Source: Halichondria panicea
Lineage: Eukaryota; Porifera; Demospongiae; Suberitida; Halichondriidae
Direction of reading: 5' to 3'
NCBI RefSeq assembly: GCF_963675165.1
Contig: NC_087393.1
Span: 1,017,002 to 1,081,001, forward strand
Length of the DNA: 64,000 nt
Below are positions 17,964 through 63,613 of the stretch, one piece after another. The translations under genes were made by a program, and so were the position numbers. Position 1 is the stretch's first letter. Each line of letters begins with the position of its first letter. The notes beneath the pieces were generated by a model. The model saw only the letters and a list, made by a program, of their open reading frames with translations, searched no databases and was not told the DNA's origin.

Positions 17964-20223
17964 CTAACGAGTCTGTCGTGCAATGTCTGAGCTACGATTT
18001 TGATTGTCCTCACCTTGACTTTTTGCATTGTTAATCTTCGCAACAGCTAAGGGATCAAAATTTTCTCGTGGGTGGGAGTTAGAACAGACCCCAACAACAT
18101 CAGAGCCAGCACCATTGTGTTCTTGCACTTGAATCGGTGGAACTAGATCTTCTACTGCTTCCACATCAGATACATTTCTGTTGGGGGGGGGGGGGGAGTG
18201 AAAACAAATAATATATACACTAATGGCTGTACACTTCACAAGGGCGTAGCAAGCAAGTTTAGAGTGCGGAGAAAACAAGCTGGGGCTTACATTGTGCCCG
18301 AAATGTTGGGCAAGAAACCATACCCCTAATTATACCACACCTCTATTTATGACTTGTACACACCGAAATTAATGGCAAGGCCCCCGATTTTAATATTGAT
18401 GACCATTACCAGCTATACACAATTTTCAATAAGGACGACCATTTAATACCCAAAAGCGATCTGGCCAAAAATGGAGCAGCCTGACCACTTCCCACTTCCC
18501 ACGGCCTTGCTTCCCACAAGCAAGAACCTAAATCTGAATGCAGCATTGAAAAGGCTATCTAAACTGAATTATACTCTAGACCCTAGTATAATGCATGGGA
18601 CCCTAGCTTGCACTGTCAACACTAACTTACCTTCGAAAAGGGTTGCAGGAACACTTACAGTATTTCATGGCAACACTACAGAAAAAGAAGGTAAACAAAA
18701 CTATTCAAACGCAATTGGTGAACTCACCAAATTATTATAATGATGACGATGATGACGAAGAGAAGAATGCCCACACCCACAACAGAAACAACAATAACCA
18801 AAGTCGACGAAACCTCTGCCTCCGCCGTCGGTACTTCATTGGCACATGAACAGTTATCTACCTTCTCCCCTAGGGTAAGTCGTAACAAGTCAGGGGTGCC
18901 GGACATGTTGACTGTTCTGTGTCCACACGAGCTGGTGATATTTGTAATATGGACTTGATTCGTTTCATAGTTGAAGTACGCTCCACTAGTTTTGCTGACA
19001 TCAAATGATGGCCTCAAGCAATTGTTATCCTCATTAGTACATGCTGATAAGTTGGTTATTATGTGGTTTTCGGTTGTCAAAGAAACACTAAGTAACTGTC
19101 TGCTTTCAGTCAATGCCCAGAACACAAACGAATCTTCAGCTCCTAGACAAGCTGCATACTTGATATTATCAGGGAGTTCACCAACAAAAGATTGTTGAGT
19201 GCTGTTGCCGAACATAATTTGTCTCTTATTTTCAACGCGGACATATTGGTTCAACCCAGGACAGGGATAGCGAGAGTAGGTGTTGTGTGTGGGGATGCTA
19301 GAATCAGCCAGGACAGTCCAACTATCATTGTTCTGAGTACAGTAGATAGAAACGTCATTTTCAGTGACATCTATTTGATTAGTATGCGTGCAGTTGTCTA
19401 TATGTATATTTTCTGGAAGAAGCGATGAAGACGCATCGGCATCAGTTACTTTCAAGTCATCAATGTCAGTAAAAAATATATGATAGGTTAAACGATGGAA
19501 TGCGCATACAGCTTCGGACAAAGCGCTTGAGCTTCTAAGAAAATATTCTTCAGAGGATCGTACAATAATCCGCTCTTTCAATTTGAACTCTACAAATAAC
19601 AGCAATCCGTTAGTCTCACCCGATAGTTCGACACACATAATCACAATACGATTGTACTCAGAATTCAGAAATGCTTTTACCGGATTACAATTTCTGTCCA
19701 CCGTGTGGAAAGTGTAAAGAGGGAGTTCACCAACCTGATAAGTAATCATGACAAACCCTCCTTGTGACGGGACAAAAACGATTACTTCCGACTCCATTTC
19801 AATTAGTAGGACATCGCATAATTTGTAGTTCTCGCCGCACTGGGTTGGCAAAAAGCGATTAGGAATTTCAAGTGTGAAGTTTTTGGGCTTGGAGGTTGAG
19901 AGGTATAGTAGAGTCCCTGCGTCTGTTGAGGTAGCTGCCACAAGGTATTGTCTCCTGCAGATTCCTGGGAGGGTTGACAAGGTGTAGTACGTGTATCGTC
20001 AACATCTTGCGGTTTCAACAGAATTGAAACATGATGACATAATGTGGTTTACAAGATTATATGAACATGTACACAGTCTAGTTTTTATATTGCATTCTAG
20101 GTATTGTTAATGTTAAAATAGATTCATTGGTACATGGTTACCATTGTGGGATTCCCCAAGGGCAGCAGTGGTAAATCTAGTTAGGAGGAGGAGCCCCAAC
20201 ACTGGGAATGTTATTGCAGCCAT
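17964..20223 (-). CDS. Family-P receptor m1-A (4 exons, 525 aa)
   Basis: Exons 20223-20142, 19964-18728, 18675-18631 and 18177-17964 sum to 1578 nt, in frame throughout. The signal peptide exon (phase 1) is followed by an ectodomain with strand-like repeats, a CLG motif at residue 300, DNNC after it, and several N-glycosylation sites. The transmembrane helix is at about 416-439; the phase-2 junction follows immediately. The juxtamembrane exon is Cys-rich (KYCKCSC), possibly palmitoylated. The tail is about 70 residues, polar and acidic then basic. Unlike m1-B and m1-C it has no Leu-Pro-Ser/Thr stalk. It is the only intact m1 of the three blocks. Its acceptor before the last exon has a run of 14 C on the coding strand. 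Function is unknown. Confidence 0.8.
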
Positions 20224-20505
20224 CACAAAGCGCTACGTGTTAATAGACTAACTGTTAACAGGCTTTCTCAGATCAATCTCTCTTAAAATGGCCACATGTA
20301 TAAATAGTTCAAAATAAAGCGCAGCTAGCTATATCACAGGATGTGGTAATAATAATTATATCAGGAATGCACATTAGTTGAGTAGAACACACACTCAACA
20401 AACACAACACACTAGCACTAGGGCCTACTGGTCCAATTGTTCTGTTATTGCAAGCAGCACACATGAATAGTGCATAAGTTTAGGGTGATCATTTAGCTTG
20501 CAAGT
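20224..20505. other. Short intergenic region between m1-A and m2-A
   Basis: It lies between the m1-A start and the m2-A stop, both minus strand, so it should hold the m1-A promoter and m2-A 3' UTR. It is nearly identical in blocks B and C. No strict kappaB site was seen. Confidence 0.35.
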
Positions 20506-22789
20506 TCAGTAATCTTTCAGCAATGGCATGTTATCATCGGCTTTGCCGAGACTTGAGTGGCTGCTTTCAGATTCAGAGTGATTCTCCCACTTTCCTTGAT
20601 CATTATCAGTATCGCCCAGCTGCAGTTTGGGCATTTCCAACCACTCTCCATGATCTGGATTTCCTTTTATGTAGTTAGTTGCTGCATTTGTCCCCTTGGT
20701 GATTAGTCCGAGAGAGGATGGAGCTGGTAAGATGTCCCCTATATGATGGACTTCCCTCATTGTGTGTGAGTCACTGTCTGTGTTCCCAACTTGCTCCTGT
20801 GTTGCGGTTGTGTTAGTAGCCACAATCGGGGATGTGTTTGTTGGATTATCGTTGTTTACTTGCACTTGCACACTCGGTCTATTTAACAGCAGGGGGTGGA
20901 CGACCTTGACACTGTGGGTGTGTGTGTGTGTGTATGTGAGTTCAATAGTGCAAAATTTAATAGTATGAATATTAATTTTATCAGGAGTTTCATGGCATTC
21001 ATGCACTCCTGATTTTTTTTATACAGTGCAAATGAAAATCATTGATTCTAAGAATACTTCCTACCTTTACAAAAATGCAAACGATATTGTACCTTGCAAG
21101 TGTTTGTTGACTGTTGTGAGAAGTTGCTATAACGACCACCTCTGTAAAAAAGTTCACATACGTAAAGCTAAGGAATGAGCACTGATTATTGATTACCACT
21201 TTCTTTATCTGTTTGTTCTGTTGGGCTGAAGAAAGAGGAAAGAGGAAACATAGTAACATAATTTATAAATTGCATCAATTAACTCACTAATTCGGCCGTT
21301 TCCGCTTGTAACGGATGTGACCAACGATTAAACCAACAACAACCATAACAACCAGAACAACTATTAATACTGCTGACACGGCTCCAGCTATAGCTCCTGA
21401 GAAGTCCTGAGAGTCATCATCAGCAAAAGAGATAACACTTGGAGTTTCGTTGCGAGCTATGAGCATGCAGTCCAAGGCAACATTGTTAACAAACTTGAAC
21501 AGAGCTGGCGTGTAGTGTTGCACTGCAATCACACTAGATAAGTCATTTTCAACATCCAAAATGTGCAGATTTTTATCAGTTTCACTGTTCTCACGAATCA
21601 CCAAATATTGATTATTGATGACGTCAATTGACAGACATCCAGGGTTAGTACAAGAAGTTTTCAGAACTTGAGTATGACTAAAAGTTTCCATATTGATAAT
21701 GTACACATTACTTAAATCACTGTAGGCAAACATCGTTGGTTTTTTTGCAGCTCCAAAACATACACCGTCTGAAAAACTATTTCCAAGTAGATTAGTGTTG
21801 CCAACAAGATCGTTAATGCTATATCGCATGTAGTTCGCAGCTGAGAACACTATCAATTCAATACTGGTATTAGGACAGACATAAGGTACGCCATCTGCTT
21901 CATTCCAATACTGAAAGTCCCAATCTTCATACTGTATGCTGTAATAGACATTCACAAGGTCGCAGTACGCCAACAGTCGTGAGTTTCCAATATACTGCAG
22001 ACTTCGGACATGCGTGCAGTTGTATCCAACGTTGCCATACTCATCCCCTCCAAATGCAACTATGTCGAATACATACATTGAGTTTCCAACAGAAAAAAAT
22101 ATCATTTTGATGACAAGTCCTTCATTGACATAGATTGGATTAGACAGTGTTATTTGCATGTCCTCATCAGGAGTGTGAAATTTCGCAATAGGAGCAGAAG
22201 AAAGAGTAGTTTCTTGCAGTACAGTCTTGTTTAGGAAGATTCTATGCAGCGAGATGTAGTTTCGTGTTGTGTCTGCACATACTAGATAGTAATCATAGGC
22301 AATTTCGAATGCTTTGATCGGGCTGCAGCTGTACTGTTCTTGACCTGATCTTGTGCTCAACAAATATTCCTTTCCAAACTTTACGGATAGCCCTGTTTGC
22401 ACGACCTCCTTTATCAGCAGGCCATCTTCGAACGGTACAAAAATGAGGTATTGAATAAATGTCTTCTGTTGAGTTGTCAAAATTAGTGGATCCTTGCAGC
22501 GAAAAAAATTGTCTCCACATGCGCTAGAAAATTGTCCCTGCAAAGTTGCTTGCATGTGACTTTGAGCTTCGGATGAAGTGTACGGGAGATTGTTATCGAA
22601 GATTAAGGAGAGACCAACGCCACCAGTTTCCTGTGAGACTGCAAAAAGAAAGTCCTGGCTGCAAACTGGGACATCCCCTGTATTGACAAGACGAGTGAAT
22701 ATCGGTACACCTAGCCAGTAAGAAAAATCTTTACCTTTGGCCTGAAAGTTAGTGACCACAATAAGGAGTAGTATTGTGAAGATAGCCAT
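20506..22789 (-). CDS. Family-P receptor m2-A (5 exons, 642 aa)
   Basis: Exons 22789-22735, 22677-21288, 21225-21197, 21141-21093 and 20911-20506 sum to 1929 nt, in frame. The start is the ATG giving a compact signal peptide (MAIFTILLLIVV...); the longer reading from 22972 lacks one. The 57-bp first intron can be read through but has a clear acceptor at 22678. The ectodomain has CFG at residue 325, then C-x(4)-C. The transmembrane helix is at about 446-470 and ends in a basic RYKRKR stop. The tail is about 160 residues, Ser/Thr/Asn-rich with an acidic Ser cluster, ending in DNMPLLKDY; DxxxLL fits an acidic-dileucine sorting signal. It is divergent from p-A (239 bp between starts). Confidence 0.85.
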
Positions 22790-23028
22790 GTCTAAGTACA
22801 GCCTATTAATTAATAGGACATTAATAAATGTCACTGTCACCGGCTCTGAGCTCATGCAATTAATAGTGAGGTTGAAACTGTACACAGCAGTATGAATACA
22901 GTCATCAGTGTGGTCGTTTTGGGGGCTCCCCGGGGAAAGCCCCAAACCACTACATTTATAAGTACACAGCACTTGTGTATTTTATCCAGTTACGGTTACA
23001 TTCCAAGTGCCACAGCTCAGTACCAGGA
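22790..23028. promoter_or_regulatory. Bidirectional promoter m2-A / p-A with kappaB-like palindrome
   Basis: Only 239 bp separate the two start codons. GGGGGCTCCCC at 22921-22931 contains two overlapping matches to GGGRNNYYCC and lies within a larger GC-rich imperfect palindrome (to about 22945) that stands out from AT-rich surroundings. Conserved in block B and replaced by other kappaB-type matches in block C. Promoter role is inferred. Confidence 0.5.
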
Positions 23029-25433
23029 ATGGTAAAGGGGCGTATGCTGACTGCTGGAGATGCTCTGAGCTTTATATTGTTTCTTCTCTGCACTGCAGGT
23101 AAGATATTTTGGAATAATTAATCTCATCCAACGGGCTTTCTATATAATAATTATTATAGCCTTATACTGAGGTCTCTGACTGTCTTTTTAATATATAATT
23201 ATCAGCATGTATCTACTGTAAGACCTCGATTTAAGGCGACCCTCCAAATATGCGATACCCAGGAGCTTCAGCAATTTTCTGACCTCTAAAAGTAGCAACA
23301 GCTGCGTTGACAATTATTTTTTAATGTCGCGCTCTAAATAGAGGTAAATGTAGCCACTCCCTAGCCTCGATTGTAGCCCACTGGAAAATCAGTGTTTTTA
23401 AGTGGCCTGAAATCGAGGCAAGTATAGACTCTGTAAAGTTACCTCTAATTAGATGCGACCCTCTAAATATGCGACATCAGGACTTCAATATAATTTTTCA
23501 ACCTCCAAAAGATGCGACCTCTGGCTTCGTAATTATAAAGTGTCGCTTTAAATCGAGATCTTACGATACCAGTAAATAATTATAATTATGGCCTTTACTT
23601 ATTATGATCATGCATACCCTGCAAAGCAACTATATAGCTATGCATATAAGAGAAATAGGCCTACCCAAATAATACATTGTTTTTTATCCCCCAGGGACTC
23701 ATGGATTGGCATTAACGGACAATGCAACATTCTCACTAGAAGTCAATTCAGATATAGTTCTGTTTTCGATTCAAAACACTTCTCATGGCATTAGCATTGC
23801 AGTCACTCCTCTGTGCCCCAATCAAGATGACTGTTTTGCCCCCCAATCTCTACTAATAGACGGTATTTTCTTGCCTGAAGAATGCACGAATGTCCCCTGT
23901 AACGAGCACCAACTTGTCATCACAAAGGCGTTGGATAATAATTCTACAATCCAATATGTAATAGGAGTACCAACCGTTCAATCTTTGCTGCTGCTACGGT
24001 TCCATTATCATGTCCAATCACATATGTTTGAGCTGGTCGAGAAAGCTACTGTAAATCGAGGAATTGTTCAGTACAACTGTAATCCAACGGCTATTGTGTC
24101 TTTGAAGGAGGTGTACTATACGCTATGCGTGAATAATTCCAATGATCGACTAATTGTTCTTGTTATAGATAATCTTGAAAGATTCAGTGATGTTATCTTC
24201 AATTTGATCGGGAGGTCGGTTGATGTGAACCTCCTCCCAATAACGGACATCTCAGTGGTAACCAGACAATCGAAATTGTATATCTTGTTTGTTGGAGGAT
24301 CTGAATTGACTGCTATAGACATTGGAGTGGGTGACTTTCATTCTCAAAATTTTGCGGATTGTACTGGAACAATTTACAGAATGCGTCTACGCAATGACAC
24401 GAAAAGTGATGACACAATTCTATACCTGCTCTACTGTAATGAGAACTATGGGTTGATTGAGATTGAGGATGATTTAAACCCACCACTGTCCTATTACTAC
24501 AATGAGACTGGCTACCCTGTAATTTGCCAAAAAGAAGACGCTATCGTGGCAGAGATTACAGTCTTCAAAGACGGTGTGAATAGTATTCTACGACATAACG
24601 GCACAAACTTTACTTTACCTGGGCAAGCAATTTCACTTGAAGAGAGCTCATGTTTTGGATTCAAAGATGCTCTATTGTACGTTTACAGTGACCAGAATTT
24701 AGGTACGGTAATTGTTCACTTGCAAAAACAAATTTTAAGGGAACTGCTAATTGTGAAGTGTCAGCCATTAATCTGTTCCTCTTCTGTGCTCAACAATCGA
24801 TACGTCCTGCTGAAACAAAAGTACAGTGATTCCAATGTTACTCTGATATTGTACGACATGCAACAACAAAAGTTTGTGTCTGAAACTGCAATTGAGCATA
24901 CTACAAGCCTAATACAACTGCTTGAATTACCACAGCCACAACAACCTGATACGAGTAGGTTGATTAGCACTATCATCGGATCAATCATTGGAGGATTAGT
25001 ATTTGCAATTTGTGTACTGGTTTTCGTTATTGCAATCATCAGGTAAGATAATTTGTGGAAAGTATAGAATCAATTTACACTTTTAATATTTTACCACAGG
25101 TATTGTTGGAGAAAACGATGTTCACCAGCACGATATGGACACCAGGTTGTAGAAAATGCAGCACCATCATATGAACGGATGCCCCACAAACAAGCCTCAC
25201 CACCTGAACCACCAGCCTCACCATCTGAACCACAAGCCCCACCACCTGAACCAGGAATACAAGCCTCATCACCTGAACCACAAACCCCACCACCAGAACC
25301 AGGAGCACAACCAGGAGCACGACCTGAACTACTCAATGTAACTACCACCTCCATGCCCATCGCTCCCGATAACACTAGAAAATGTTCTCATTTGGTCACT
25401 GGGTTAATTTTACATCCCACTAAAACTGACTGA
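23029..25433 (+). CDS. Family-P receptor p-A (3 exons, 583 aa)
   Basis: Exons 23029-23098 (signal peptide, phase 1), 23695-25042 and 25100-25433 sum to 1752 nt, in frame. The ectodomain (about residues 30-445) has strand-like repeats, a Y-x-C-x-P motif with YYTLCV after it, CFG at residue 343 and C-x(4)-C. It has many N-x-S/T sites. The helix is at about 447-472, with the phase-2 junction directly after. The tail exon starts with a Cys/Arg-rich stretch, carries YERM (YxxM, a PI3K-type motif), then about 50 residues of Pro-Glu-Pro repeats, absent from p-B. Intron 1 contains a MITE (23220-23565). It shares a divergent promoter with m2-A. Confidence 0.85.
23220..23565. mobile_element. MITE with GTCGC(C/T)TTAAATCGA ends in p-A intron 1
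   Basis: The inverted termini read 'taagacctcgatttaaggcgac' at the left (about 23220) and the near-complement at the right (to about 23565). The internal 'gcgaccctc.aaatatgcga' motif occurs twice. Block B has a copy lacking about 100 bp of the left end (40627-40930). Right-hand fragments also occur at 34030-34150 and 56350-56460. Confidence 0.6.
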
Positions 25434-26603
25434 TGTTTTATTATTAGTAGTGAATATTGACACTTCCCATATACGTAGCTACAGGATCGAACTGGCTGTG
25501 CTATAATTTTTAAAATGTGCTGCATAAAAAAGAATGAGAAACTTAAAGAACTCTTCAATCACATTGACAGCATGAAAATCAACCTACTATTAGCTACTGT
25601 TTTGGATTCGAAGATGCTTATTCTGACAAAATCTATGTAGACTATGTAGGGAGGTACGTGGGGGTAAACAGTTATATTGCTGTACCACTTCCCACAAGCA
25701 AGAACCTAATCTGAACACAGCATTAAAAAAGGAGTATTAGTAAAACCAGTAGGTTTTACATAGGATTGGCAGTGGGTTTGCCCGTGTTTAGCATGTTCAA
25801 ACTGTTCTATCTCTGCAGGGAAAGGCCACATCAGATAGATATCAAGGAACTGGCTAGACAGATAGTTTATTTAGCCTTTTCTCTCTTTGTATCTCTCATT
25901 TCATAATCCATGAACATTTTAATGAATGAATATTATCATTTTAAAAATTGCACTATTTCGACGTTTCACCGCTCTTTGTCTGACTGACTAAGTAAGTAGA
26001 CTAAGTAAGTAAGTGAGTAAGTTTCTTGCCCAGCATTTGCTCCAAGTACAGCCATCTCCAGGACATTCTGCACAGGGTTTCCAAACGACTACAACCTGGA
26101 TTACAAAGCGCTTCTTCAGATTTGCGATTGCTTCCACGAGGCAGATGACCTCTCAGTATCTATTTCTCTTACCTAGACAATTCCGCCATCTTTAATGACT
26201 CAGCAATTTCGTTGTGGCCAATTAATAATAGATAGGCGTGGCTAAGAAACTGCGTGTGCCCTAGCGCCTAAAATCCGGCAGTGCAGCAGTGCTTTTCCAG
26301 AGCCTGAGGTGTTGCTTTTCTTCACACTGTTCAGCTCTAGCTCCCTTTCTCTGACAGGCATGCTATATGCACTGGCATATAGCATACTCTTAAAATGGCT
26401 GTCATTTATAATACTGATTCACAAATTCAACATATCAAGAATATAACTCATTACTAGATCTATAATTATTAGTCCAGAGATATTCGAGAAGATATCTGAT
26501 CAGTCCTGTCTTCTCTTCTTCAACTTCTGTACTGCCTCTTGACGTTCCACTTATGCATGTCATAATACGTAAATTTATACTTCTGTACTGAAAAAGAAAG
26601 GGA
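25434..26603. other. Gene-poor interval after p-A
   Basis: No coding exon was recognised. A (taag)n-like microsatellite is at 25988-26021. This interval is largely absent after p-B, so blocks A and B differ here. Confidence 0.4.
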
Positions 26604-27154
26604 ATCCGACTAGAAAAACATTTGCAATGTGAAAAATTGCTAGGATTGGCCAGGGGAACCACAAAAAAGCGTGGAAACAAGAAATCAGACGAGAGCATAA
26701 CTCCAATCCGTTACAACGTCATGAACATGTACAATGCATATATAGACTGTATTCCAGATCCATCTACCAGCTTCCATCCACCACATCATTCCATGTAGGT
26801 CACCAGTACGGTCCGTGCATGTTACTACGCATGGATGGACTGTGTGTACCTGTGCTCAACACTGCATGTATTAGGAACATCAATTCAGTATACAAATCAT
26901 CATGATTAGCTATATGCCCGCACATTCCAAAATGGATGTATAATAAATATATAGGGATTGCATGGTCATCACTCCACCAGTAAAAATTGCGTGGTATATT
27001 GGCCGGGAAAACATGGAAAACTACCAGTACATATGATTGACGTTGTAACGGATTGGAGTTATGCTCTCGTCTGATTTCTTGTTTACACGCTTTTTGTGGT
27101 TCCCCTGGCCAATCCTAGCAATTTTTCACATTGCAAATGTTTTTCTAGTCGGAT
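26604..27154. mobile_element. Inverted-repeat element, 117-bp near-perfect arms
   Basis: Bases 26604-26720 and 27038-27154 are reverse complements over 117 bp with only a couple of differences, separated by 317 bp without an ORF. The outer ends read ATCCGACTAGAAAAAC. It would form a long hairpin. No clear target duplication was identified. Confidence 0.75.
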
Positions 27155-27189
27155 CTATACTATAGGCCTGCATGCATGGGCACTCTAAA

Positions 27190-27845
27190 AGTTAGCTTGC
27201 CCGTCAATTTACCTTTAAATCGAGGTCTTTCTTCTTACAGCGTTGTAGGAGCACTTGCAGTTTATCACAACAACATACACTACAGAAAAAGAAGGTAAAC
27301 AAAGTAACCAACAATGCAGACAACAAGAAGAATGACCACCACAGGAACAACAATAGCCAGAGTCCATGAGGACGGCAAAGAGGGGACGGCAATGAGGACA
27401 GTAATGAGCGGAAAATAAAATCGGAATGAGGATAGCAAAATATGTTGGCACACGAGCAGCTGACTGGTCTGGTCTTCTTTCTCTCCTAACCCAATTTGTA
27501 ACAAGTGTGGGGGACAAACATGTCAACTGTTCCGTGTCCACAAGAGCTGTTACAGTAGTGTAATATGGACTTGATTCGTCTCATGATTATGATATTTAAG
27601 TACGCTCCACAAGTTTATGTGGCATCAAAATAATGGCCTCAGGCAATTGTTCCCCTCAGTATATATAGTGTATGTTGACAAGTTGGGGTCATAATGATGT
27701 TATTTTCGGTTGTCAAAAGAAAGCTAAATAGCTAGCGTCTATTTCTAGTAAATACCCAAAACATAATTCAGATCCAAGACGCAAAGCTCCATTTGTGATA
27801 TCATCAGGGAATTCACCAACTAACTTTAAACTATTCATAGTCGCA
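27190..27845 (-). pseudogene. Second decayed m1-type family-P gene
   Basis: Minus-strand relics of m1: the juxtamembrane exon near 27290-27215, the helix/stalk region with remnants of the 12-bp stalk unit (27360-27420), the CGH-region near 27540, the CLG-to-C region near 27800-27650. Multiple stops and indels occur. It occupies the place between p-A and T-A and has no counterpart in block B. Confidence 0.6.
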
Positions 27846-27994
27846 GCATAGGTCTATGAGAAATTCTGTTTGTATACAACACGCATATAATTTCATTCTC
27901 ACAACCAAGTTGTAATTTAACAAGGTACACTGCACAACAATCTTATTAAATCTAAAAAAAGTTGCTAAGTATCATATATACAGTCAAAATGGTT

Positions 27995-30796
27995 TTAGGG
28001 TGGTTTGTTTGCAATGATAATTATACGTACATTAATTTCCTTGATTATTAGGTATGTTTTGCTGTTGATTACTTCTCTTGAAGCATGTAGTTGTCTTATC
28101 GAGAAATATTGGAAATATGGCAGAAAGCATAGCTGGAAAAAACCGACAACAAAGACAAGCAAAGAAACTGTGGATGTGTATGGACCCATGTTGACTGTTA
28201 TCATGTAGAAAAATACACAGTACGATATAATCGCCATCCATACGAGTAGCACTATTATATTCATCAGTGTATATGTGCAGATACATGTACAAGTGAATGT
28301 ACTTTCTTGGTCTGGTGGAGAAGTGTCTGGTGGAGTGCTACTTGAAGTTTCTGATGGTCCAGGAGTGTTAGTACCTTCTAAACTCATATAGCCTCTTAGC
28401 TTCGCTACCATCTCCATTAGTAAAGACATCATGATGTCCTTGTTTATTACTAAGAACATTACTAAGCACACGTTTGTAATAAAAAAATTTTTGCTGCAAG
28501 ACCAAGATTAAAACCAGTAGCTACTGGAGCTGCAACGAGCCCCAAGAAGATATAAAAGAGGTGGAAAGATAGTAGGTTACCGGTTAGCTCAACAATAACG
28601 ATGGCTGCTACATACAACTTGGTGTTCTTTAAGGTATCTCGCCATCCAGTGTAAGATTGAGACTTTTGTAAGGACTTGAGAGTGCAACAAAGAATGATGA
28701 ACAATACAACAGGATTATAACCGAGTACAAATATCGCAGCAAAAATGTAAAAGTTGCATATACTTTTTAAGCTTGATGTGACATTCACAGTGATTACTAA
28801 TGTATGAATGTTATTACTGAATACAATCAAACCAAGTAGAACAAATGCAGTAAGGAAACATTTGAAAAATAACATTTTCCACTTACTTAAACCACTTAGT
28901 CGAACATATACAAGTTGACCAATTAAAGGAACAACAATTGGATTCAGCAGTTGCGTCAACATTATAGCAGCAGCCAAGACATATCTCATGATCGCAAAAT
29001 CTTTAACTTGCCTTAGCGTACAAACATCGTTTACATAAATCCTAGGATCAAAGTAATAGATGGGATAACCCTGCCATTCAAAGTACCAGTGCCATGAGTA
29101 AAGAATGACTGCTTGTGGAGGTAGAAGCTCTTTAGCTGTAGTAAATAAGCAACTGTATAATTATGCATGTACATGTATGTACATGTGCATGCATGTATAG
29201 TGGTATCCATGCAGCAGGCATGCATGTGTGATACTATAATTATAGCCTCGATTCCAGGCCGCAGCGGCCTGGTATACCTGTATGCGCATGCGCGTACATT
29301 ATTCCAAAAAGGGGGTAATCCGTGTATATTTGTGGATACTGTCAAAATAATAAACACGTATAATTATATACTATTTGTATTCTGAAGTTGTATAGTCTGT
29401 TACATATAAAAGTATTGTCCAAAGATGACCGTCTGAGTTGTATCACCCTCTACTTAACAACACCTTACACTGCATGTAAGGCTATATACATGCAGGAAAG
29501 GCATGATGTGTTCCTGTGGGTCCCCTGATGAGGCTGTGGTAATATGAACCAGGCGAGTCTTCTGCTACCAAATCTTCGACAAGAAGTCATTGCATATATG
29601 CTATTTAGAAGCTACAGGGTAATGATCATTAAATTTAACTGACATTTGGGAATCTATTCACTCAAGATCTAACCACTATTCCTAGCTGGCAGCTCTAGCT
29701 GTCTGGGAGGCCTTCTTGACTGCCTCTTTGGATAAACAGAGCTAGAAGAAGCAACACTGCTGCAGCAAATTAGTTAGTGTCTCTGAAGCTGCCATTGTGG
29801 TCTGGTCATAAACATTAATTTTACCACTAACCACATGGTCATACGTCTTTTTGTAACTTTGTCCGTTTTTTTACAATTTGTAGTTGCTGTCAATTATTTT
29901 GCGCATGCGCATGCAGAGTATACTAGGCCGCCTTTCTCCTCGCAGCCTGGAATCAAGGCTAATGTGTATAATCATATGAATTTGTATAGTTTGTAAAGAA
30001 TTACAGAATGGCTCAGTGGGCGCCAGGTATTCTGAGAAGAATGTGCATGAAGTCAAGCGTATCAATGGGGTACACAAGTGCTAAGCCAAATATTCCAGAC
30101 ACCGTGGCTGCCATAATTATGGGGATCTCCCGGGGACAGTCCCAAACTAACACCACACCTCTTAATTATGTATAATTATAGGAAACTGAATCAGCCTGGG
30201 AATGAGACTACTGTTAGCAGACCATGAATGGTACTTACATTAACTGTGATACTTTCCAGCATCACGAGAATTGGAGATGGATGCCTACAAATGTATAGCA
30301 GGTCATTGCTTTCATTCTGTGCAGTCAATGTCAACGACTCATTCACATGTACATCATCACAAACAGGGTCCAGAATGAGATGGGCTTCAGGCAAATGTAC
30401 TTGGAACATGTACAGGGAGAGAGTTTGAAGGAGATCCGGACGGATGAAAAGGTTGATTGGAGAAGCATTCCAAAGAAACTTGAACATATAGCGTTCACTG
30501 AAGTCAAGTGTTCCCTTCTTTCCTAAATGCAGACCGTGGACCCAATTTTCTAGCGCACTGCAAGATGGTAGGCTGCTATTGACAGGATTCAATGAGCAGA
30601 AGTGGTAGTACACATAAAATGAGATACTATCCTGATGATTAGTAGGGGAGAATGCTTGATTTAATGTCTCCAGGTTGACTATCCGGTTAACCAGAGACTG
30701 TTGGAGGTCATACTGAGTTCGAATGCACTTTTCTTCAGTACTGAATGCATCCTGCATTCCAAAACAAAGCATTAGTAGGAGAAGATAAGTAGCCAT
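27995..30796 (-). pseudogene. Family-T gene T-A, two frameshifts relative to T-B
   Basis: Exon 1 (30796-30239, 186 codons) is open: signal peptide MATYLLLLML, then an ectodomain with the T-family core (FSPTN, YYHF, SPINLFIRPDLLQTLSL, LDPVCD), ending at TVN in phase 0. Exon 2 runs from 29135 to 27995 and is nearly identical to T-B but lacks one base near 29073 and one in an A/T homopolymer near 28485. Each shifts the frame, so no intact seven-helix protein is encoded. The homopolymer site could be an assembly error; two sites make decay more likely. The start follows the signal peptide; an in-frame ATG exists upstream at 30937. Confidence 0.65.
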
Positions 30797-47660: not shown

Positions 47661-47713
47661 AACAGTGATACAAACTCATTCTCAGACTCAAACCACACCA
47701 GCCTTTCACTGCA

Positions 47714-53120: not shown

Positions 53121-53189
53121 AGATGAACTTATATGCAAGGAAATGTTTTGAAACTATACTTTAAGACCATTCGGTCTTGGCCGGCGGTA

Positions 53190-53578: not shown

Positions 53579-53584
53579 TGCATG

Positions 53585-55545
53585 TTTTAAACAGACTCTA
53601 GAGAGTGCACATTCAAAATGTGAGAAGAATTCTCTATCTGTCGAGGGACGGTATTCTTAGTAGTATTCTTCACCTTAAGCCAGAGAATGTCACAAGGTCA
53701 GTTCTTCTGTTTATGGTTATAGGCACATACGCTTCTACTCCACCTCCATGAGAATTCTAAACTCTGTCTTTCCTGTGGATATATCATTCTTGTACAGTAC
53801 CTGTAATCTATAGAGTAGAATACCAAAAATTTGTTGAGTATATATATACATCATGTATATAATTATATATAGTTGTGCTGAAGGCTACTGCTGAAACGAT
53901 CACCCCAAGTATAACAATGCATGCTTTTCAATCTATCGATAAAAAACTGTGAACTGCCCTACGACTGGAAATTGGCTCATGTCTCTCCAATACCCAAATC
54001 AAATAACAAGTCTGATCCCTTAAACTATCGCCCTATATCGCTACTCTCCATCCTTGCAAAGTTCCTGGAAAAACATATGTATGGCAAAATCTTAGAACAT
54101 CTAAAAGATATATCTTTCCTCTCGAATAAACAATGGGGTTTCACTAAAGGAAAATCCACCACAGGTGCGTTGCTTACGGCAGTGCACAATTGGCACAAAC
54201 TGCTTGAAGATGGTCAGAGTGTATGTGCAGTCTTTTTTGATTTCAAAAAGGCATTTGACAAGGTTCCTCACTCGATATTGATGAGTAAGCTAACCAATCT
54301 GAACTTAGATCCCCATCTGGTATCTTGGGTATATAGCAAGCTACCTCAGGAATAGATCACAGTATATCACAATAAATGGAAAGTCATCAAATATCTCCGA
54401 GGTTGTGTCAGGAGTTCCACAGGGTTCGGTGCTGGGACCTCTTCTTTTCCTAATCTACATTGATCTACATCAAAATGAAGGAAGTCTCTTGCTCTATGCT
54501 GATGATCTTCTTCTTTACCATCCTCCTGAAGATTATCTAACATTGCAAGGAGATATTGACCAACTCCAAGCATGGTCTGAAACAAATGTACTCTTGTTTA
54601 ACCAAAGCAAGTGTAAATACATGATTATATCGAAAATTCAGCCCACCACTTCCCAACATGTGTCTCAATATCAATGGACGTCCCCTATACTTAAAGTTGA
54701 CCACTACAAGTACCTTGGCGTGTGGATCTCTCATGACCTCTCATGGTCAAAACGCATAGAAGGAATGTGCAGAAATTCCTGCAAGCAGGTTGGTATAATT
54801 TACCGACAGTTCTATGGCCACTCGTCACTAGAATGTTTAAGACAACTCTACATCTCACTTGTGAGACCAAAACTGGAATATGCTAGCTGCCCCTGTTTGG
54901 GATTCACACCAAAAAACAAATTCTCACAAAATACAAAAGTTTGCCCTTAAAATGGAATCGAGGCTACCTTAAAATGTGCACAAAACTTTGGAATAGGGAC
55001 TACGACTCCCTATTAGATACTGTGGACCTACCGTCCCTTTCCACAAGAAGATTGTACCTGAAACTATCATACCTTTACCTGGTAATACCGTATAGCGCGA
55101 AATTTTCGAGGGGCTTAATTTTCGTGGATTTCGTGGGTTAGCAATCCTACACAAAAATTAAGTCCACGAAAATCGTTCTTTACCTGCTATAACGTGCAAG
55201 ATTTAAAGGCGTGGCTTCCGGTAAGCAGTCATTCCGCGAACATTGTGCAACGAAATGGCTTTTAGAGGCCAATCCACGAAATATAACTGCCTCGAAAATT
55301 TCGCGCTATACGGTAAATGGTAACTTTAAATTCCCTGATCCACCGCTAGAAAGAAGAGTATGCCCTCTCAATCTAAGAAGCACAAAAAATATACAGATTG
55401 AAAGACCAATTTGCAGGACAAATGCATATGCGAACTCTTTTTTCCCAAAAGCAATATCTATAATATATGGAATGAACTACCACTGGAGCTGCAGGAAAGT
55501 ACATTGATTTTGTCATTTAAGAGAAATGTACTCTGTAACTTGCAT
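53585..55545 (+). mobile_element. Truncated CR1/jockey-like LINE, copy B
   Basis: Duplicate of the LINE at 31640-33260, in the same surrounding sequence. RT motifs are readable: FFDFKKAFDKVPHS, SGVPQGSVLGPLLFLIY, LYADD near 54504. It keeps a thumb segment (54780-54950, LVRPKLEYASC) that copy A has lost by deletion near 32880. It is broken by a stop near 54353, and by a 226-bp MITE at 55088-55313. Confidence 0.8.
55088..55313. mobile_element. 226-bp Tc1/mariner-type MITE, copy 2 (in LINE)
   Basis: Ends CCGTATAGCGCG / CGCGCTATACGG with TA at 55086-55087 and 55314-55315. Copy A of the LINE reads straight through at 33015 (ggtaataaatgg), proving a TA target duplication. Confidence 0.9.
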
Positions 55546-55784
55546 TAGTATAATATTAGTCTTTATCTTTAATTTGTACACACTATTGTAAGTACTATAT
55601 ACAGGGCACACATTAGGTTAGCATAATAATTATGCTACTAGTGTATCCATGCATTTTGCAAAATTATTATAAAAAAAAAGGGTATATGCAGCATGTACCA
55701 AATGAAGTTCACCTACAGCTCCATGCATGGCTGATAGCAAGTCAACATTAATTATGCATGTGTACTTCTACAACTATATAGAAT

Positions 55785-56310
55785 CATCTTGCTGCGGTGT
55801 GTCTCCTGAGCGCCCTGTCACAGTGACACATCTTTCTGTGATATGTTTCCTGAGTTGGATTTATTGTCCTGTGTGACACATTTTCCTGTGGTTTTGTCGG
55901 ATTAGCAGAGGATTCTTTTGTTTTGACTTTGATACAAGTTGTAAAAATTCCTCCCACATGCAGTAGTCGCCAGAACCGATGGAACAATAATAGTTCCTAG
56001 AAAAGCAATTACTCCACTATACTTGAATTAGTAAAGTGTATACTTAATTGTAGACGAAACTAACCCAATGCCACTGTAGTAACACCAATCAAAAGAAATA
56101 TAAGAGTAACTAATGTATGCAAAACTAAATCCTATGAGGGATTCCATCTTGTGCACTATCTTCAAACCAGTGGCTATATATAAGGCCGAAATTAGAGCAA
56201 AGAGGCTGAGAGGTACAAAAGCAACAGAGAGCCAGATTCAACTGATGCAGCTATGCAGCTATTACTGCAAAAGATATAAAGAAGAGAACAAGCTGTGAGC
56301 AAACAAAGTT
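55785..56310 (-). pseudogene. Family-T gene relic (C-terminal helices), copy B
   Basis: Near-identical to 33480-34015, with the same broken frames, confirming that it was a relic before the block duplication. Confidence 0.6.
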
Positions 56311-56707
56311 AACTGTCTCCCCCATCACCGGCCTAAATGGTGAATATAAATATGCGACACCAGCTAGGACTTCAACATAATTTTTCAACCTCCAAAAGAA
56401 ACGACCTCTAGCTTTGTATTTATTTAAAAGTGTCGCCTTAAATCAAATAAGTACGGTAGTCTTGTTCTTTTTTACAGTCTGCATCGTGGATTGAACTGTT
56501 GTTAAGGGGAGGTCCTTTTATAGTACTGCAGTCATGTGATATAAGTCAGATATGCCACACCTACTCGGAGGGTATGCACCCCATATATCCTCCGCTATAT
56601 ACCATGGTTACATACCCCTTGGTTACGCCTCAGAGTAACCACGGTAGCAGAGGATATAGGTCCATATCCTCCTCTTATATACTTATCTACCAAACCACAC
56701 CCAAACG
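56311..56707. other. Junction between block B and block C
   Basis: Contains a MITE right-end fragment (56350-56460) and the same tract as 34160-34437. No gene. The region equivalent to the m1 tail exons is missing (see m1-C). Confidence 0.45.
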
Positions 56708-58483
56708 TCATATCTGGCCGTAATAAATAATTTGGGGCAACCAGTACCAGAGCCGGCAGTACCAGAGCCAGTATATACCAGAGCCATAATGAACTGTAAT
56801 GATGAGAAGAATGCCCACAACAAGCAAAGTCAATGAAACTGAGGTCGGCAATGATGTAGGCAATGAGGTCGGCAATGTGGTCGGCAATGAGGATGGCAAT
56901 AAGGACGGCAATGTGGTCGGCAATGAGGTCGGCAATATGGTCGGCAATGAGGACGGCAATGTGGTCGGCAATGAGGACGGCAATGAGGTCGGCAATGTGG
57001 TCGGCAATGAGGTCGGCAATGAGGACGGTAATGTGGTCAGCAATGAGGTCGGCAATGTGGTTGGCAATTTGTTGGCACATGAGCAGCTGTCTTCCTTATC
57101 CCCTAAGGTAATTCGTAACAATTGTGGGGTCCCGAACATGTTGACTGTTCTGTGTCCACACAAACTGGTGATATTTGTAATATGGACTTGATTTGTCTCA
57201 TGATTGAAGTACGCTCCACTAGTTTTCCTGGCATCAAATGATGGCCTTAGACAATTGTCCCCCTCAGTAGTGCATTCTGACAAGTTGGTTAGCGTGTGGT
57301 TTTCGGTTGTTAAAGGAACACTAACTAACCGTCCATTTTCAGTAAACGCCCAAAACACAAAAGAATCTTCAGATCCTAGACAAGCTGCATATGCAATATC
57401 ATCAGGGAGTTCACCAACTAAAGATTGTTGAGTGGTGTTGCCAAACATAATTTGTCTCTTATTTTCAACGCGGACATATTGGTTTAACCCAGGACATGGA
57501 TAGCGAGAGTAGGTGTGGTGTGTGGAGAAGTGAGAATTAGCCACGACTGTCCAGCTGTCATCGTTCTGAGTACAGTAGATAGAGACTTCGTTCCCAGTGA
57601 CATCTATTTGATTAGTTTGTGTGCAATCATTTATTGTTATTAAGAATCCGGGTTCGAGCGATGAAGACGCCTCGGATTCAGCTACTAGCACGTCATCGTC
57701 TTCGGTGAAGAATATACGATTGCTTGCGTGTACAGCTTCGGATAAAGTTCTAGAGTTATGAAGTACAAATCTTTCAGAGCATCGTAAAGTCATCCGTGAC
57801 AAACTGAACTCGAAAATAAACAGCGATCCATTGGTATCAGATGATAACTCAACACACACGATCACAATAAGATTGTGCTCGGAATTCAAAAATACTTTTA
57901 CCGGATGACAATTTGCCGTGACTGGATGAAAGATGTCGTGAGGGAGTTCACCAACCCGATAAGTAACCATGACAAACCCTCCTTGTGATGGGACAAAAAC
58001 GATTACTTCAGACTCCATTTCAATTAGTAGGACATCACATAATTCGTAGTTCTCGCCGCACTGGGTTGGCAAAAAGCGATCAGAAATTTCAAGTGTGAAG
58101 TTATTGAGCTCGGAGGTTGAGAGGTATAGTAGAGTCCCTGTGTCTGTTGAGGTAGCTGCCACAAGGTATTGTCTCCTGCAGATTCCTGGGAAGAGGGGTA
58201 GACAAGGTGTAGTACGTGTATCGTAAACATCTTGCGGTTTTAATTAATACACATGTACAGAACTGAAGCACCTGTTTTACATGATGACATAATGTGGTTT
58301 AATGTATTATACATGTACATGTACTGAATTTATATGTATTGTAGTCTACATGATGATCTAGAATAGATTCATTGGTTTACCATTGTGGGGCAGGGGATTG
58401 GTAGATTCCCCAAAGGCAACAGTACTAGTGGTAGTTAGGAGGAGTCCCACCAACACTGGGAATGTTATTGCAGCCCTAGCCAT
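56708..58483 (-). CDS. Family-P receptor m1-C, cytoplasmic tail deleted
   Basis: Exon 1 is 58483-58381 (signal peptide, phase 1) and exon 2 runs from 58195 to a stop at 56708. The ectodomain is very close to m1-B (CLG, CSCANK), followed by a Leu-Pro-Ser/Thr stalk (56839-57070). The helix reads SLTLLVVGILLIIT and then switches to an unrelated Tyr/Trp-rich reading of the 'accagagcc' microsatellite. Relative to m1-B about 1.4-1.5 kb is missing: the helix end, its splice donor and all tail exons. The product would be a tail-less or unstable protein ending HYGSGIYWLWYC... No downstream m1 tail exons were found. Confidence 0.7.
56839..57070 (-). repeat. 12-bp coding array: mucin-like stalk of m1-C
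   Basis: Same units as 36012-36228, in a different order and number: LPTS/LPTT/LPSS/LPTI tetrapeptides. Length and unit order differ from B while flanking ectodomain codons are almost identical. Confidence 0.85.
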
Positions 58484-58746
58484 CACAAGCAGCTTTCTCA
58501 GGATTTCCTAAAGGCACTTAAAATGGCCTAGCTACATTTATAGTTCAAAGTGCGATCAGCTACTCACAGGATGTCGATTCTCTTGATCTCATATATTAGG
58601 AATGCTCATTAGTTGAGTACAACACACACTCAACAAACACAACACACTAGTGCTAGGGCCTATTGGTCCAATTGTTCTGTTACAGTTATTGCAAGCAGCA
58701 CACATGAATAGTGCATAAGTTTAGGGTGAACGTTTAGCTTGCAAGT
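58484..58746. other. Short intergenic region m1-C to m2-C
   Basis: Equivalent to 37627-37891; no coding sequence. Confidence 0.35.
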
Positions 58747-61548
58747 TCAGTAATCCTTCAGCAATGGCATGTTATCATCTTTGCCGAGACTTGAGTGGCT
58801 GCTTTCAGATTCAGAGCGATTCTCCCACTTTCCTTGATCATTATCAGTAACGCCCAGCTGCAGTTTGGGCCTTTCCAACCACTCTCCATGATCTTGACTT
58901 CCTTTTATGTAGTTAGTTGCTGCATTTGTCCCCTTGGCGATTAGTCCGAGAGAGGATGGAGCTGGTAAGATGTCCCCCATCTGATGGACTTCCCTCATTG
59001 TGTGTGAGTCACTGTCTGTGTTCCCAACTTGCTCCTGTGTTGCGGTTGTGTTAGTAGCCACAATCGGGGATGTGTTTGTTGGATTATAGTTGTTTACTTG
59101 CACTTGCACACTCGGTCTATTTAACAGCAGGGGGTGGACAACCTTGACACTGTGGGTGTGTGTGTGTGTGTGTGTGTATGTGAGTTCAATAGTGCAAAAT
59201 TTAATAGTATGAATATTGATTTTATCAGGAGTATTTATGGCTTCATGCACTCCTGATTTTTTTTATACAGTGCAAATGAAAATCATTGATTCTAAGAATA
59301 CTTCCACAAAAATGCAAACGATTTTGTACCTTGCAAGTGTTTGTTGACTGCTGTGAGAAGTTGCTATAACGACCACCTCTGTAAAAAAAAGTTCACATAC
59401 GTAATGAGCACTGTTTTTCTCGTTGTTTTACCCATTGTGGATTTTATATGGGCACTTGCTGCTATGTGTTTATTTGCAGTTGAGGAAAAAAGCACTAGAT
59501 CTAAAAATAATGAGGAACAAAGCGTTTTGCCCTGATTGCCTTGATTGCTACTATGCGCTTTTATAGATACAAGGATTATGACTACATTGGGGATCGAGGC
59601 AACAAGGGGCACACTTAAACAAAATCTGATTCCAAAATGTGTGCTCAAGAATGGTTGTCACATTTGTTTGATCACATTCATTATTTTGTTTGCTCAGCTT
59701 GCTCTCTTCAATTCCGTTTTTATATCTTTTGCTGTAATAGCTGCACCAATTGAATCTGGCTCTCTGTTGCTTTTGTACCTCTCAAGCCTATTTGCTCTAA
59801 TTTCGGTCTTAGCCACTGGTTTGAAGATGGTACACAAGGTGGAATCCCTCATAGGATTTAGTATTGCATCCTTATTGATGATTGCCTAGTACCCAATCAT
59901 GCAGTTTGTGGTTTGTGGTTGCTAGCTGGTAACTCACTTCCACTTTCACTACATGTATCTGTTTGTTCTGTTGGGCTGAAGAAAGAGGAAAGAGGAAACA
60001 TAGCAACATTATTATAAATTGCATCAATTAACTCACTAATTCGGCCGTTTCCGCTTGTAACGGATGTGACCAACGATTAAACCAACAACAACAATAACAA
60101 CAAGAACAACTATTAATACTGCTGACACGGCTCCAGCTATAGCTCCCGAGAAGTCCTGAGAGTCATCATCAGCAAAAGAGATAACACTTGGAGTTTCGTT
60201 GCGAGCTATGAGCACGCAGTCCAAGGCAACATTGTTAACAAACTTGAACAGAGCTGGCGTGTAGTGTTGCACTGCAATCACACTAGATAAGTCATTTTCA
60301 ACATCCAAAATGTGCAGATTTTTATCAGTTTCACTGTTCTCACGAATCACCAAATATCGATTATTGATGACGTCAATTGACAGACATCCAGGGTTAGTAC
60401 AAGAAGTTTTCAGAACTTGTGTATGACTAAAAGTTTCCATATTGATAATGTACACATTTCTTAAATCGCTGTAGGCAAACATCGTTGGTTTTTTTGCAGC
60501 TCCAAAACATACACCGTCAGAAAAACTAAATCCAAGTAGATTAGTGTTGCCAACAAGATCGTTAATGCTATATCGCAAGTAGTTCGCAGCTGAGAACACT
60601 ATCAATTCAATACTGGTATTAGGACAGGCATAAGGTACGCCATCTGCTTCATTCCAATACTGAAAGTCCCAATCTTCATACTGTATGCTGTAATAGACAT
60701 TCACAAGGTCGCAGTAGGCCAACAGTCGCGAGTTTCCAATATACTGCAGACTTCGGACATGCGTGCAGTTGTATCCAACGTTGCCATACTCATCCCCTCC
60801 AAATGCAACTATGTCGAATACATACATTGAGTTTCCAACAGAAAAAAATATCATTTTAATGACAAGTCCTTCATTGACATAGATTGGATTAGACAGTGTT
60901 GTTTGCATGTCCTCATCAGGAGTGTGAAATTTCGCAATAGGAGCAGAAGAAAGAGTAGTTTCTTGCAGTACAGTCTTGTTTAGGAAGATTCTATGCAGCG
61001 AGATGTAGTTTCGTGTTGTATCTGCACATACTAGATAGTAATCATAGGCAATTTCGAATGCTTTGATCGGGCTGCAGCTGTACTGTTCTTGACCTGATCT
61101 TGTGCTCAACAAATATTCCTTTCCAAGCTTTATGGATAGCCCTGTTTGCACGACCTCCTTTATCAGCAGGCCATCTTCGAGCGGTACAAAAATTAGGTAT
61201 TGAATAAATGTCTTCTGTTGAGTTGTCAAAATTAGTGGATTCTTGCAGCGAAAGAAATTGTCTCCACATGCGCTAGAAAATTGTCCCTGCAAAGTTTCTT
61301 GCAAGTGACTTTGAGCTTCGGACGAAGTGTACGGGAGATCATTGTCAAAGATTAAGGAGAGACCAACGCCACCGGTTTCCTGTGAGACTGCAAAGAGAAA
61401 ATCCTGGCTGCAGATTGGGACATCTCCTGCATAAATGAATACGATATATAAATAAAAAACAGGTCAGAGGAGCGTAAACATTATTTTTACTACCTAATGT
61501 TTGGTCAAATCCTATGCACAGTGCCAGAATCAGTAGCCAGTCAGCCAT
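58747..61548 (-). CDS. Family-P receptor m2-C (5 exons, 644 aa) with a different signal exon
   Basis: Exons 61548-61494, 61426-60037, 59975-59938, 59378-59330 and 59149-58747 sum to 1935 nt, in frame. Ectodomain, helix and tail are almost identical to m2-A and m2-B (CFG, RYKRKR, DNMPLLKDY), with the B-type third exon. Exon 1 is unrelated in sequence (MADWLLILALCIGF versus MAIFTILLLIVVT) though the same 55 nt and phase, and similarity to A/B ends in the first intron. Intron 3 is expanded to 559 bp by an antisense T-gene fragment (59414-59871). It is divergent from p-C. Confidence 0.85.
59414..59871 (+). pseudogene. Family-T gene fragment inside an m2-C intron
   Basis: About 458 bp encode a recognisable piece of T exon 2 (VLKNGCHI, FAQLALFNSVFISFAVIAAP.ESGSLLLLYLSSLFALIS, MESLIGFS-like), close to T1/T3. 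It lies antisense to m2-C. The block B intron lacks it: 'gagcactg' joins directly to 'attattgat' at 38554. Stops interrupt the 5' half. There are no clear terminal repeats or poly-A, so filler-DNA repair or gene conversion is likelier than transposition. Confidence 0.75.
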
Positions 61549-61763
61549 TCTATGATATGAGCCCTCAGATCTAGGTCTAGTTTAGTGAGCTGTGGTTTCG
61601 CAGGTACATACCCGGTAATATGTAGTCTGAAACATAATCATGTAGGGTATTCTCTAGCCACGAATAGCTGCCTGCCTGGGATCTTCCCCGGGAAACCCCC
61701 CCTCCACATGTAACCAAATACACTTTGTGGCTTTATTTAATACAGACAAAGTACATTTATCTG
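61549..61763. promoter_or_regulatory. Bidirectional promoter m2-C / p-C with kappaB-like sites
   Basis: 215 bp between start codons, not alignable with A/B over most of its length. Still contains GGGATCTTCC (61678-61687) and GGGAAACCCC (61690-61699), both matching GGGRNNYYCC, in a GC-rich patch. Confidence 0.5.
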
Positions 61764-63613
61764 ATGGCTTCCCACAGTTTGTGGGGGAGGAGTGTGGTTG
61801 TCTTGGAGTTTGTTATCTTGCTGGGTAAGTGATATAGCTAGCTACTCATACAATTAGCTACCTGAGATACTAGCATATATCTGGGCTCTTGAATCTTGTT
61901 ATAATTATATTTTTTCACACAGTGTGTACCATTTGCCAAGTTTCCGAAACCAGACGAAGTGACAATGCGAGCCTCTCTCTGACTATCAACTCAAAGCTGG
62001 CCCTATTTTCAGTTCAAAACACTACTCAAGGCATCAGTATATCCATCACTCCACTTTGTTCCAATGCTCCCTGTTCAACTCCGGAGGCAATCACTATCGA
62101 CAATGTGTTCCTCCCTGCCGAATGCTCTCTTGCTCCATGTGATTCACACATGTTGTTCAAGAAGGAAGTGCTTAACGAGTCTTTTGTCCAGTATTTGATT
62201 GGAGTGCCAGCTAATCAGTCGATGGTCATGCTAAGATTTCTGTATGAGACGACACTGCAATTGTTTGAAATGGTCGAGAAGGTTATAGCAAATCAAGGAA
62301 TTGCTGACTGCAGTCCTACATCAGTTGTGCAGTTACACGAACAGTACTACACGCTGTGTGTTAATGAAGTTGACAACAATCTTCAAGTGCGTGCCATTAA
62401 CAGTCTAGGCAATTTGAGTCAAGTGAGGTTCAACCCCATAACGGACATACCGATGGCCCTCCCAATAACTGCCATTTCCGTTCTCGACTACTTTGATATT
62501 GTGAGACTCCTGCTTGCAAATGGACCAATATTGACCATAGTAAGCATTGGATTGCTTGAGAAAAGGTCACATCCTATTACCGAGTGTGTGGGGATTATAC
62601 ACCAATTGAAGCTTCGCGATATTACTGACATTTATTCGACCATACCATACCTAGTCTATTGTGAAACAAACTACATTGTACTGGATACTTGGAGCTCTGA
62701 CGATCCAAGTGTTATATCATCCCATTACTACAACGAGACTGGCTATCCTGTGATCTGTTCGAATGAAAATGGCTCTATAGTTGCTGAAATTGCTATCATT
62801 CAATCTGATTTTAACAGTACAATCCACTACAGAGGCAAGGAAATCATTATACCAGGGCAAGAAATTGATCTCGAAAAAAGCGTTTGTTTTGGTGTTGAAA
62901 AAAAACTGTTTTATCTCTACTCTGATTTTACACTAGGGGCGTTTCTTGTAAATTTAGAAACTGGAAACTGGATTGTTCTCTCTAGTTTATCAGCTATATG
63001 CACCAAACCACAAGTGTTTGATAATCGCTATGTTCTACTGGAAGAGGTGTTCAGTGGAAGCAATGTGACTCTACGTTTGTTTGATGTACTCGTACAAGAG
63101 TTTGTATCAGTAGTCAACATGGATCATGCTTCGAACTTTGTTCAGTTGTTACAGTTACCACAGCAAAAACCAGCAGAAAAAAATCTCACTACGGTGCATA
63201 ACATTTTCATTGGAATTGGTGCATTTCTATTCCTATTGCTGGTTGTAGTAGTTCCAGCAGTCATCATCATTGCATCACGGTGAGTCCTAATATTGTATTA
63301 TTATAATGTGTTATGATGATATTTTTTACTACACAGCCGTTGTCAGAGCAATCAGCAACCTCCCTTCAGTGTACAGGCAGATCCATCCAGTGAGATTCCA
63401 GGCTGCACGGAAGGAGAAAACGATCTAGGTTTCGGAATTGATGAAGCTGAGGACGTCCCTCAAGAAGAAGGTAATAGGGAATCTGATTCTGAAGAGCGTT
63501 CCCCTACAACTATCAGCCAAGAAGCCGACCCGACCAATGATGTATCTGATATATCTTATTTAGTACCAGGTATGGACAAAACACCAGTTACATACTCATT
63601 ATTAGCTAGCTAG
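61764..63613 (+). CDS. Family-P receptor p-C (3 exons, 564 aa)
   Basis: Exons 61764-61824 (signal peptide, phase 1), 61923-63279 and 63337-63613 sum to 1695 nt, in frame. The ectodomain is a clear but diverged relative of p-A (about half identical by eye): same VPxxQS, YYTLCV and YYNETGYPVIC segments, CFG at residue 342. The helix (about 448-472) precedes the phase-2 junction. The tail (about 92 residues) is acidic, unlike p-A and p-B, and ends ...ISYLVPG...TPVTYSLLAS; V-T-Y-S-L-L fits the ITIM consensus (V/I/L/S)xYxx(L/V/I). It is the most diverged p copy, intact, and shares its promoter with m2-C. Confidence 0.85.

What the first reader, a model, noticed from the sequence alone, without database searches (positions are those of the whole stretch)
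17964..63613. Three-fold tandem block of an unrecognised transmembrane receptor family (m1-m2-p, with T)
Nine type I membrane genes in the fixed order m1(-), m2(-), p(+) repeat three times in 46 kb, plus G1 and two relics. All share a signal exon, one ectodomain exon, a Cys-Phe/Leu-Gly motif followed by C-x(3-5)-C, one helix and variable tails. I know no named family with this signature. Recurrent duplication, decay of different members in each block and changing tails resemble immune or allorecognition loci. The recognition role is inference.
Basis: partly seen in the sequence, partly recalled or inferred. Interest (0 to 1): 0.85.

Follow-up and report, generated by a model that had tools for sequence, protein, structure and literature searches.

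The report
Propeller-headed membrane receptor gene cluster
An animal genome, probably a sponge's, carries a cluster of related cell-surface proteins whose outer part is predicted to fold as a beta-propeller; the family matches no known protein family tested here, and its role in recognition is still a guess.

The parts
1235..2587 (+). G1: ectodomain + membrane-helix ORF (exon from about 1266); next ORF downstream, taken as tail, 2753-3580
   Evidence: closest to m2
17964..19998 (-). m1a: ectodomain + helix exon 18724-19964; tail ORF 17964-18329 (by position)
20506..22789 (-). m2a: signal exon 22735-22789, short intron, ectodomain + helix exon 21287-22677; tail ORF 20506-21018
23044..25433 (+). 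pa: signal exon 23044-23098, ectodomain + helix exon 23695-25046; tail ORF 25068-25433
27873..31625 (-). T of unit 1: multi-pass protein gene, frame broken
35881..37398 (-). m1b: ectodomain + helix ORF; usual donor in another frame; ORFs 34964-35791 downstream
37892..40227 (-). m2b: signal exon 40173-40227, ectodomain + helix exon 38722-40112; tail ORF 37892-38434
40512..42713 (+). pb: signal exon 40512-40565 (donor out of phase with acceptor), ectodomain + helix exon 41063-42417; tail ORF 42423-42713
43197..46200 (-). T of unit 2: N-terminal ORF 45481-46200 and multi-pass exon 43197-44309, open
56708..58243 (-). m1c: ectodomain ORF, helix end diverged and usual donor lost
58747..61548 (-). 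m2c: ectodomain + helix exon 60036-61426; tail ORF 58747-59262; a different signal exon 61494-61548 (phase-1 donor, read by eye from the printed sequence)
61764..63610 (+). pc: signal exon 61764-61824, ectodomain + helix exon 61923-63283; tail ORF 63320-63610
13826..14002 (-). m1-like relic
27463..27702 (-). m1-like relic
20357..37736 (.). duplication unit, copy 1 (m2a-pa-T-m1b)
   Evidence: self-comparison
37737..58591 (.). duplication unit, copy 2 (m2b-pb-T-LTR element-m1c)
   Evidence: self-comparison
9615..11593 (-). upstream T gene: N-terminal ORF 10997-11593 and multi-pass exon 9615-10826

Best explanation
These are type I membrane proteins of one old family: a signal exon, one exon that codes a beta-propeller ectodomain of roughly 370-420 residues plus the membrane helix (phase 1 in, phase 2 out), and a separate disordered-looking cytoplasmic tail. 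The propeller most likely binds a ligand at the cell surface: a partner protein on a neighbouring cell, the ectodomain of a T protein, or a microbial or matrix molecule. The tails show no known domain, so signalling would need partner proteins. The cluster grew by unequal crossing-over: one recent duplication of an m2-p-T-m1 unit on top of older duplications, with at least one border in or near the first intron, which left m2c with another leader. Shown: family, anatomy, duplication map. Predicted: propeller fold. Inferred: recognition role, ligands and the crossing-over mechanism.
Against: Both models are of moderate confidence (pLDDT 60.4 and 62.2, pTM 0.59 and 0.49; the five models of the first run from 39 to 60). 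TM-scores to single PDB chains are low (0.17-0.40 by the query in the rows listed). For the p model the best VIA row covers only residues 1-289 of 418, and many rows have rmsd over 10. The Pizza hits have no single stretch that passes on its own. No internal repeat shows in the sequence. Single e1, m2c, pc and G1 queries gave no propeller in PDB sequences. Signal exons were not accepted for 9 of 16 genes. Tails were assigned by position, without transcripts. In the three m2 pairs most changes lie in the first sixth of the ORF, not at the stalk. No ligand and no test of surface location.
Confidence: 0.6

Rival explanations
1. Ordinary cell-cell signalling or adhesion proteins of the animal, working like semaphorins and short-tailed plexins: propeller binds propeller, with no immune role.
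For: Same general build as the transmembrane Sema-1A to -1C and the four short-tailed plexins reported in the sponge Amphimedon (PMC6374515, passages). Ka/Ks below 1; nearly constant ectodomains in recent copies.
Against: No Sema match in the cluster while the same profile finds 4 places elsewhere in this genome. Tandem growth with decay is unusual for a developmental set (general knowledge).
Confidence: 0.35
2. Receptors for microbes, symbionts or food particles: lectin-like propellers on the cell surface, duplicated under changing microbial partners.
Against: Ka/Ks below 1 in 14 of 14 pairs; no Pfam domain in the tails; few tyrosine motifs.
Confidence: 0.25
3. Allorecognition locus: alleles of these receptors decide fusion or rejection between individuals.
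For: Clustered, duplicated type I membrane genes with decaying members. Graft work in Amphimedon points to a polymorphic genetic system and saw no significant enrichment of aggregation-factor-mediated adhesion genes (PMC5450542, passages).
Against: No polymorphism data; one genome only; in recent copies the ectodomain is mostly the constant part.
Confidence: 0.1
4. A largely decaying cluster in which few genes still work.
For: Broken or doubtful: m1b, m1c, pb, T of unit 1, and about nine relics.
Against: Nineteen long open ectodomain frames and Ka/Ks below 1 in all 14 pairs tested.
Confidence: 0.05

Closest known systems
Semaphorins and plexins (Sema domain)
   Same: N-terminal extracellular propeller on a single-pass membrane protein; sponge forms with short tails exist (PMC6374515, passages)
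   Different: No Sema or PSI profile match; the Sema profile finds places on C15 and C11, none on C17
LGI1 EPTP propeller
   Same: Animal extracellular propeller; among the Foldseek rows of both models (ranks 19 and 24; 1, 3, 5, 8 and 13)
   Different: Secreted (recalled); 9-10% identity; no EPTP profile match
ROS1/Sevenless with the GPCR BOSS
   Same: As a model only: a receptor paired with a GPCR on the adjacent cell (PMC11743138, start of abstract in the listing; that Sevenless has propellers is recalled)
   Different: No kinase here; no evidence that these receptors bind T
Sponge aggregation factors
   Same: Candidate cell-recognition gene family of sponges (title and passages)
   Different: Secreted, with Calx-beta and Wreath parts (recalled); no such Pfam match here

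Membership tests
Sema domain proteins (plexin, semaphorin, Met) | Match to the Sema profile PF01403 | tested here: not met
   No match in 9 window ORFs at E<=5, m1c at E<=1, 6 others at E<=5, 14 aligned members at E<=10; in the genome the profile finds 4 places, none on C17
Sema domain proteins (plexin, semaphorin, Met) | PSI domain after the propeller | tested here: not met
   No PSI match in 9 window ORFs that include the stalk, E<=5, nor in m1c, E<=1
Sema domain proteins (plexin, semaphorin, Met) | Seven-bladed beta-propeller | tested here: inconclusive
   Propeller predicted; about 29-30 strands per model would fit seven blades, but blade number was not measured; no sema chain recognised among the rows shown
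LGI/EPTP, YWTD and other propeller families of Pfam | Match to the family's Pfam profile | tested here: not met
   no such match over cut-off
Immunoglobulin-type allorecognition receptors (Hydractinia Alr, recalled) | Ig-like ectodomain | tested here: not met
   No Ig match over cut-off (best Ig_PDGFR_d4, E 0.29, in m1a); models give propellers
Allorecognition locus | High allelic polymorphism linked to fusion or rejection | not testable with these tools
   One assembly only
Extracellular beta-propeller receptors (by fold) | Propeller ectodomain plus one membrane helix | tested here: met
   By prediction only: models of moderate confidence, fold matches, helix
GPCRs (for T) | Seven membrane helices with a known GPCR profile | tested here: inconclusive
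   Hydropathy gives 9-10 peaks, several overlapping, which I read as about seven helices; no Pfam match over cut-off; not folded

The most novel reading that the evidence does not exclude
A recognition locus of an early-branching animal built from a new family of propeller-headed membrane proteins interleaved with unclassified multi-pass receptors. The two kinds would be partners in self/non-self or symbiont recognition, and recombination at exon borders would give one kept propeller different leaders, stalks and tails.
Probability: 0.1. Interest if true: 0.9.

Novelty: new variant of a known kind. Interest (0 to 1): 0.5.

Why it matters
If the fold holds, this is a sequence family of extracellular propellers absent from the profile library searched, in a lineage where the membrane receptors for self and microbe recognition are poorly known. 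The cluster gives a short gene list with exons for expression, polymorphism and binding tests. It also shows a kept ectodomain that gained another leader at a duplication border.

Tried and rejected
Sema/plexin membership by sequence: rejected. PDB sequence search by profiles A1 and A2: nothing below E 0.38. Single-member PDB searches: only the C10 relative hit propellers; e1, m2c, pc and G1 did not. Internal repeats by self-alignment of the profile: none. pc in viral contigs and phages and m2c in prokaryote genomes: no relative. Viral predicted structures: mostly WD40-type and unnamed proteins, no lead. No sema chain was recognised among the rows shown; this is no evidence of absence. Weak Pfam rows (Env-gp36 E 0.0021 with C10, RIFIN, others) lie under their cut-offs where these are shown, hit one or two members and were taken as chance. 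Crude propensity count: 27 strand runs in 400 residues, a hint only. Tyrosine motifs in 12 tails: scattered; YxN shared only by d4 and d5 among near-identical tails; m1 tails were not in that count. Eight literature searches listed no paper that I recognised as describing this family; I judged by titles and abstract starts, and most subscription papers and all preprints are not held. Relatives in other animals could not be searched.

Full report
SETTING. The window is G000:C17:1017002-1081001 of a 131-Mb assembly with 39 contigs. Sema domains (4 places; 0 of 14 prokaryote controls) and many kinase-domain ORFs mark it as an animal or close kin. Ten demosponge assemblies listed (abstract starts) span 117-292 Mb, the scaffolded ones with 14-23 chromosomes, so a demosponge fits; the species was not determined.

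OBSERVATION. Ten long ORFs were found as described. Recent copies are 93-97% identical as proteins (the m2 pairs, m1b/m1c, pa/pb); m1a is 74% like m1b; pc is 43% like pa. Between groups, full-length alignments give about 18-24%. Each of 18 ORFs scanned, ten of them in the window, has a hydrophobic helix near its C-terminal end; m1c and pb are weakest at 2.2-2.3.

BLOCK HISTORY. The self-comparison is colinear from 20357-38538 to 37737-59404 (93-95%) and again from 58592-61429 to 20357-22680 (94-97%). The array reads m1a, [m2a pa T m1b], [m2b pb T m1c], m2c, pc. Sliding windows agree: in m1, b and c are 95-99% alike and a is distant; in m2 all three are 93-99%; in p, a and b are 89-98% but for the last stretch, and c is 37-58%. 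One recent duplication of an m2-p-T-m1 unit on older blocks explains this. Against the simplest form of it, m2a is closer to m2c (97.3%) than to m2b (94.7%), so conversion between copies is likely too. The LTR element at 46929-53579 lies in copy 2 only.

EXON ANATOMY. Ectodomain and helix lie in one exon. The acceptor is in phase 1 in 16 of 16 genes examined, at the site I chose at the homologous place among the candidates. The donor is in phase 2 in 14 of 16; m1b has it in another frame and m1c has lost it (m2 donors read). d4, e2, e3 and C10 were not examined for this. Signal exons with a phase-1 donor were accepted for pa, pc and p4, m2a and m2b and m2c (read by eye from the sequence printed; the scan had missed it). 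In pb the donor is out of phase. For G1, three m1, four d and e1 none was accepted, though one search lists candidates, one of them (d3) in phase but barely hydrophobic.

A LARGER FAMILY. Searches with m2c, pc, m1b and G1, profiles over the fetched stretches and a search with e1 show the family from C17:1008.7 kb to 1162 kb. Beyond the window are p4, d1, d2, d3, d5, e1, e2 and e3; one distant relative lies at C10:4838532-4839941. That makes 19 full-length ectodomain frames. Relics number about nine: one G1-like, two m1-like, one m2-like (E 0.00085, 0.97), three d, two e. These are lower limits: the search scores only its best candidates, and C17:1141-1171 kb was seen only through loci. A tree of 14 members joins C10 with m1 (99/98), G1 with m2 (86/90, weaker) and d with e (100/100); the tool warns that long branches meet. 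Eight columns are invariant in 14 members, seven of them cysteines.

SELECTION AND TAILS. Ka/Ks is 0.25-0.63 in 14 of 14 paralogue pairs (whole ORFs, so leader and a little intron are included). Most non-synonymous changes fall in the last sixth (stalk and helix) in 8 of 14 pairs, for instance 57/18 in m1b/m1c, 66/29 in d2/d3 and 70/41 in d2/d5 (non-synonymous/synonymous; part is repeats and frame change). They fall in the first sixth in the 3 m2 pairs and in the third sixth in 3 older pairs. This speaks against strong diversifying selection on the ectodomain since duplication but says nothing of alleles. Tails, assigned by position, are acidic in 10 of 12 and poor in tyrosine (2-6 each), without a motif shared across groups. 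None of 11 tail ORFs has a Pfam match over cut-off.

T GENES. T genes have an N-terminal ORF of 181-249 codons and a multi-pass exon that I read as about seven helices. There is no Pfam match over cut-off. Relatives lie at C17:927, 996 and 1015 kb. In unit 1 the multi-pass frame is split by a frame change and stops. They share the cluster and the duplicated unit; a working link is inference. New GPCR families of holozoans are described in PMC12716839 (passages); T was not compared with them.

MECHANISM AND JUDGEMENT. The best reading is a family of propeller-headed receptors or adhesion proteins. Semaphorins and short-tailed sponge plexins (PMC6374515, passages) show that such a build can serve cell-cell recognition, but the tested sequence features of that family are not met. 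The immune or allorecognition role remains open: graft work in Amphimedon points to a polymorphic system, and the word 'receptor' does not occur in that paper's main text (PMC5450542, find).

Noticed in passing
window 46929-53579: LTR retroelement of BEL/Pao look (recalled), end repeats 92% alike, in copy 2 of the duplication unit only.
   Followed up: no
window 32202-32834 and 53915-54950: Fragments of a reverse transcriptase of non-LTR look (recalled), one in each duplication unit.
   Followed up: no
window 9615-11593, 14605-16312, 27873-31625, 43197-46200; C17:927, 996-1001, 1014-1017 kb: Family T: unclassified multi-pass proteins with an N-terminal ectodomain, clustered with the receptors; no Pfam match over cut-off.
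   Followed up: partly
window 36019-36238 and 56840-57083: A repeat that codes Leu-Pro-Thr/Ser stretches in the m1b and m1c stalks, absent from m1a; it is open on the other strand too.
   Followed up: no
window 61494-61548: m2c has a signal exon different from that of m2a and m2b, though the ectodomain exons are 97% identical in DNA.
   Followed up: partly
C3:0.87-2.46 Mb: Dozens of kinase-domain ORFs in tandem on one contig.
   Followed up: no
C10:4835627-4837460 and 4864154-4869280: Cysteine-rich and multi-pass ORFs near the single distant relative of the family.
   Followed up: no
C17:1119-1162 kb: The e genes recur about every 21 kb (1119, 1140, 1161 kb) with relics at 1134 and 1155 kb, a second tandem array.
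   Followed up: partly
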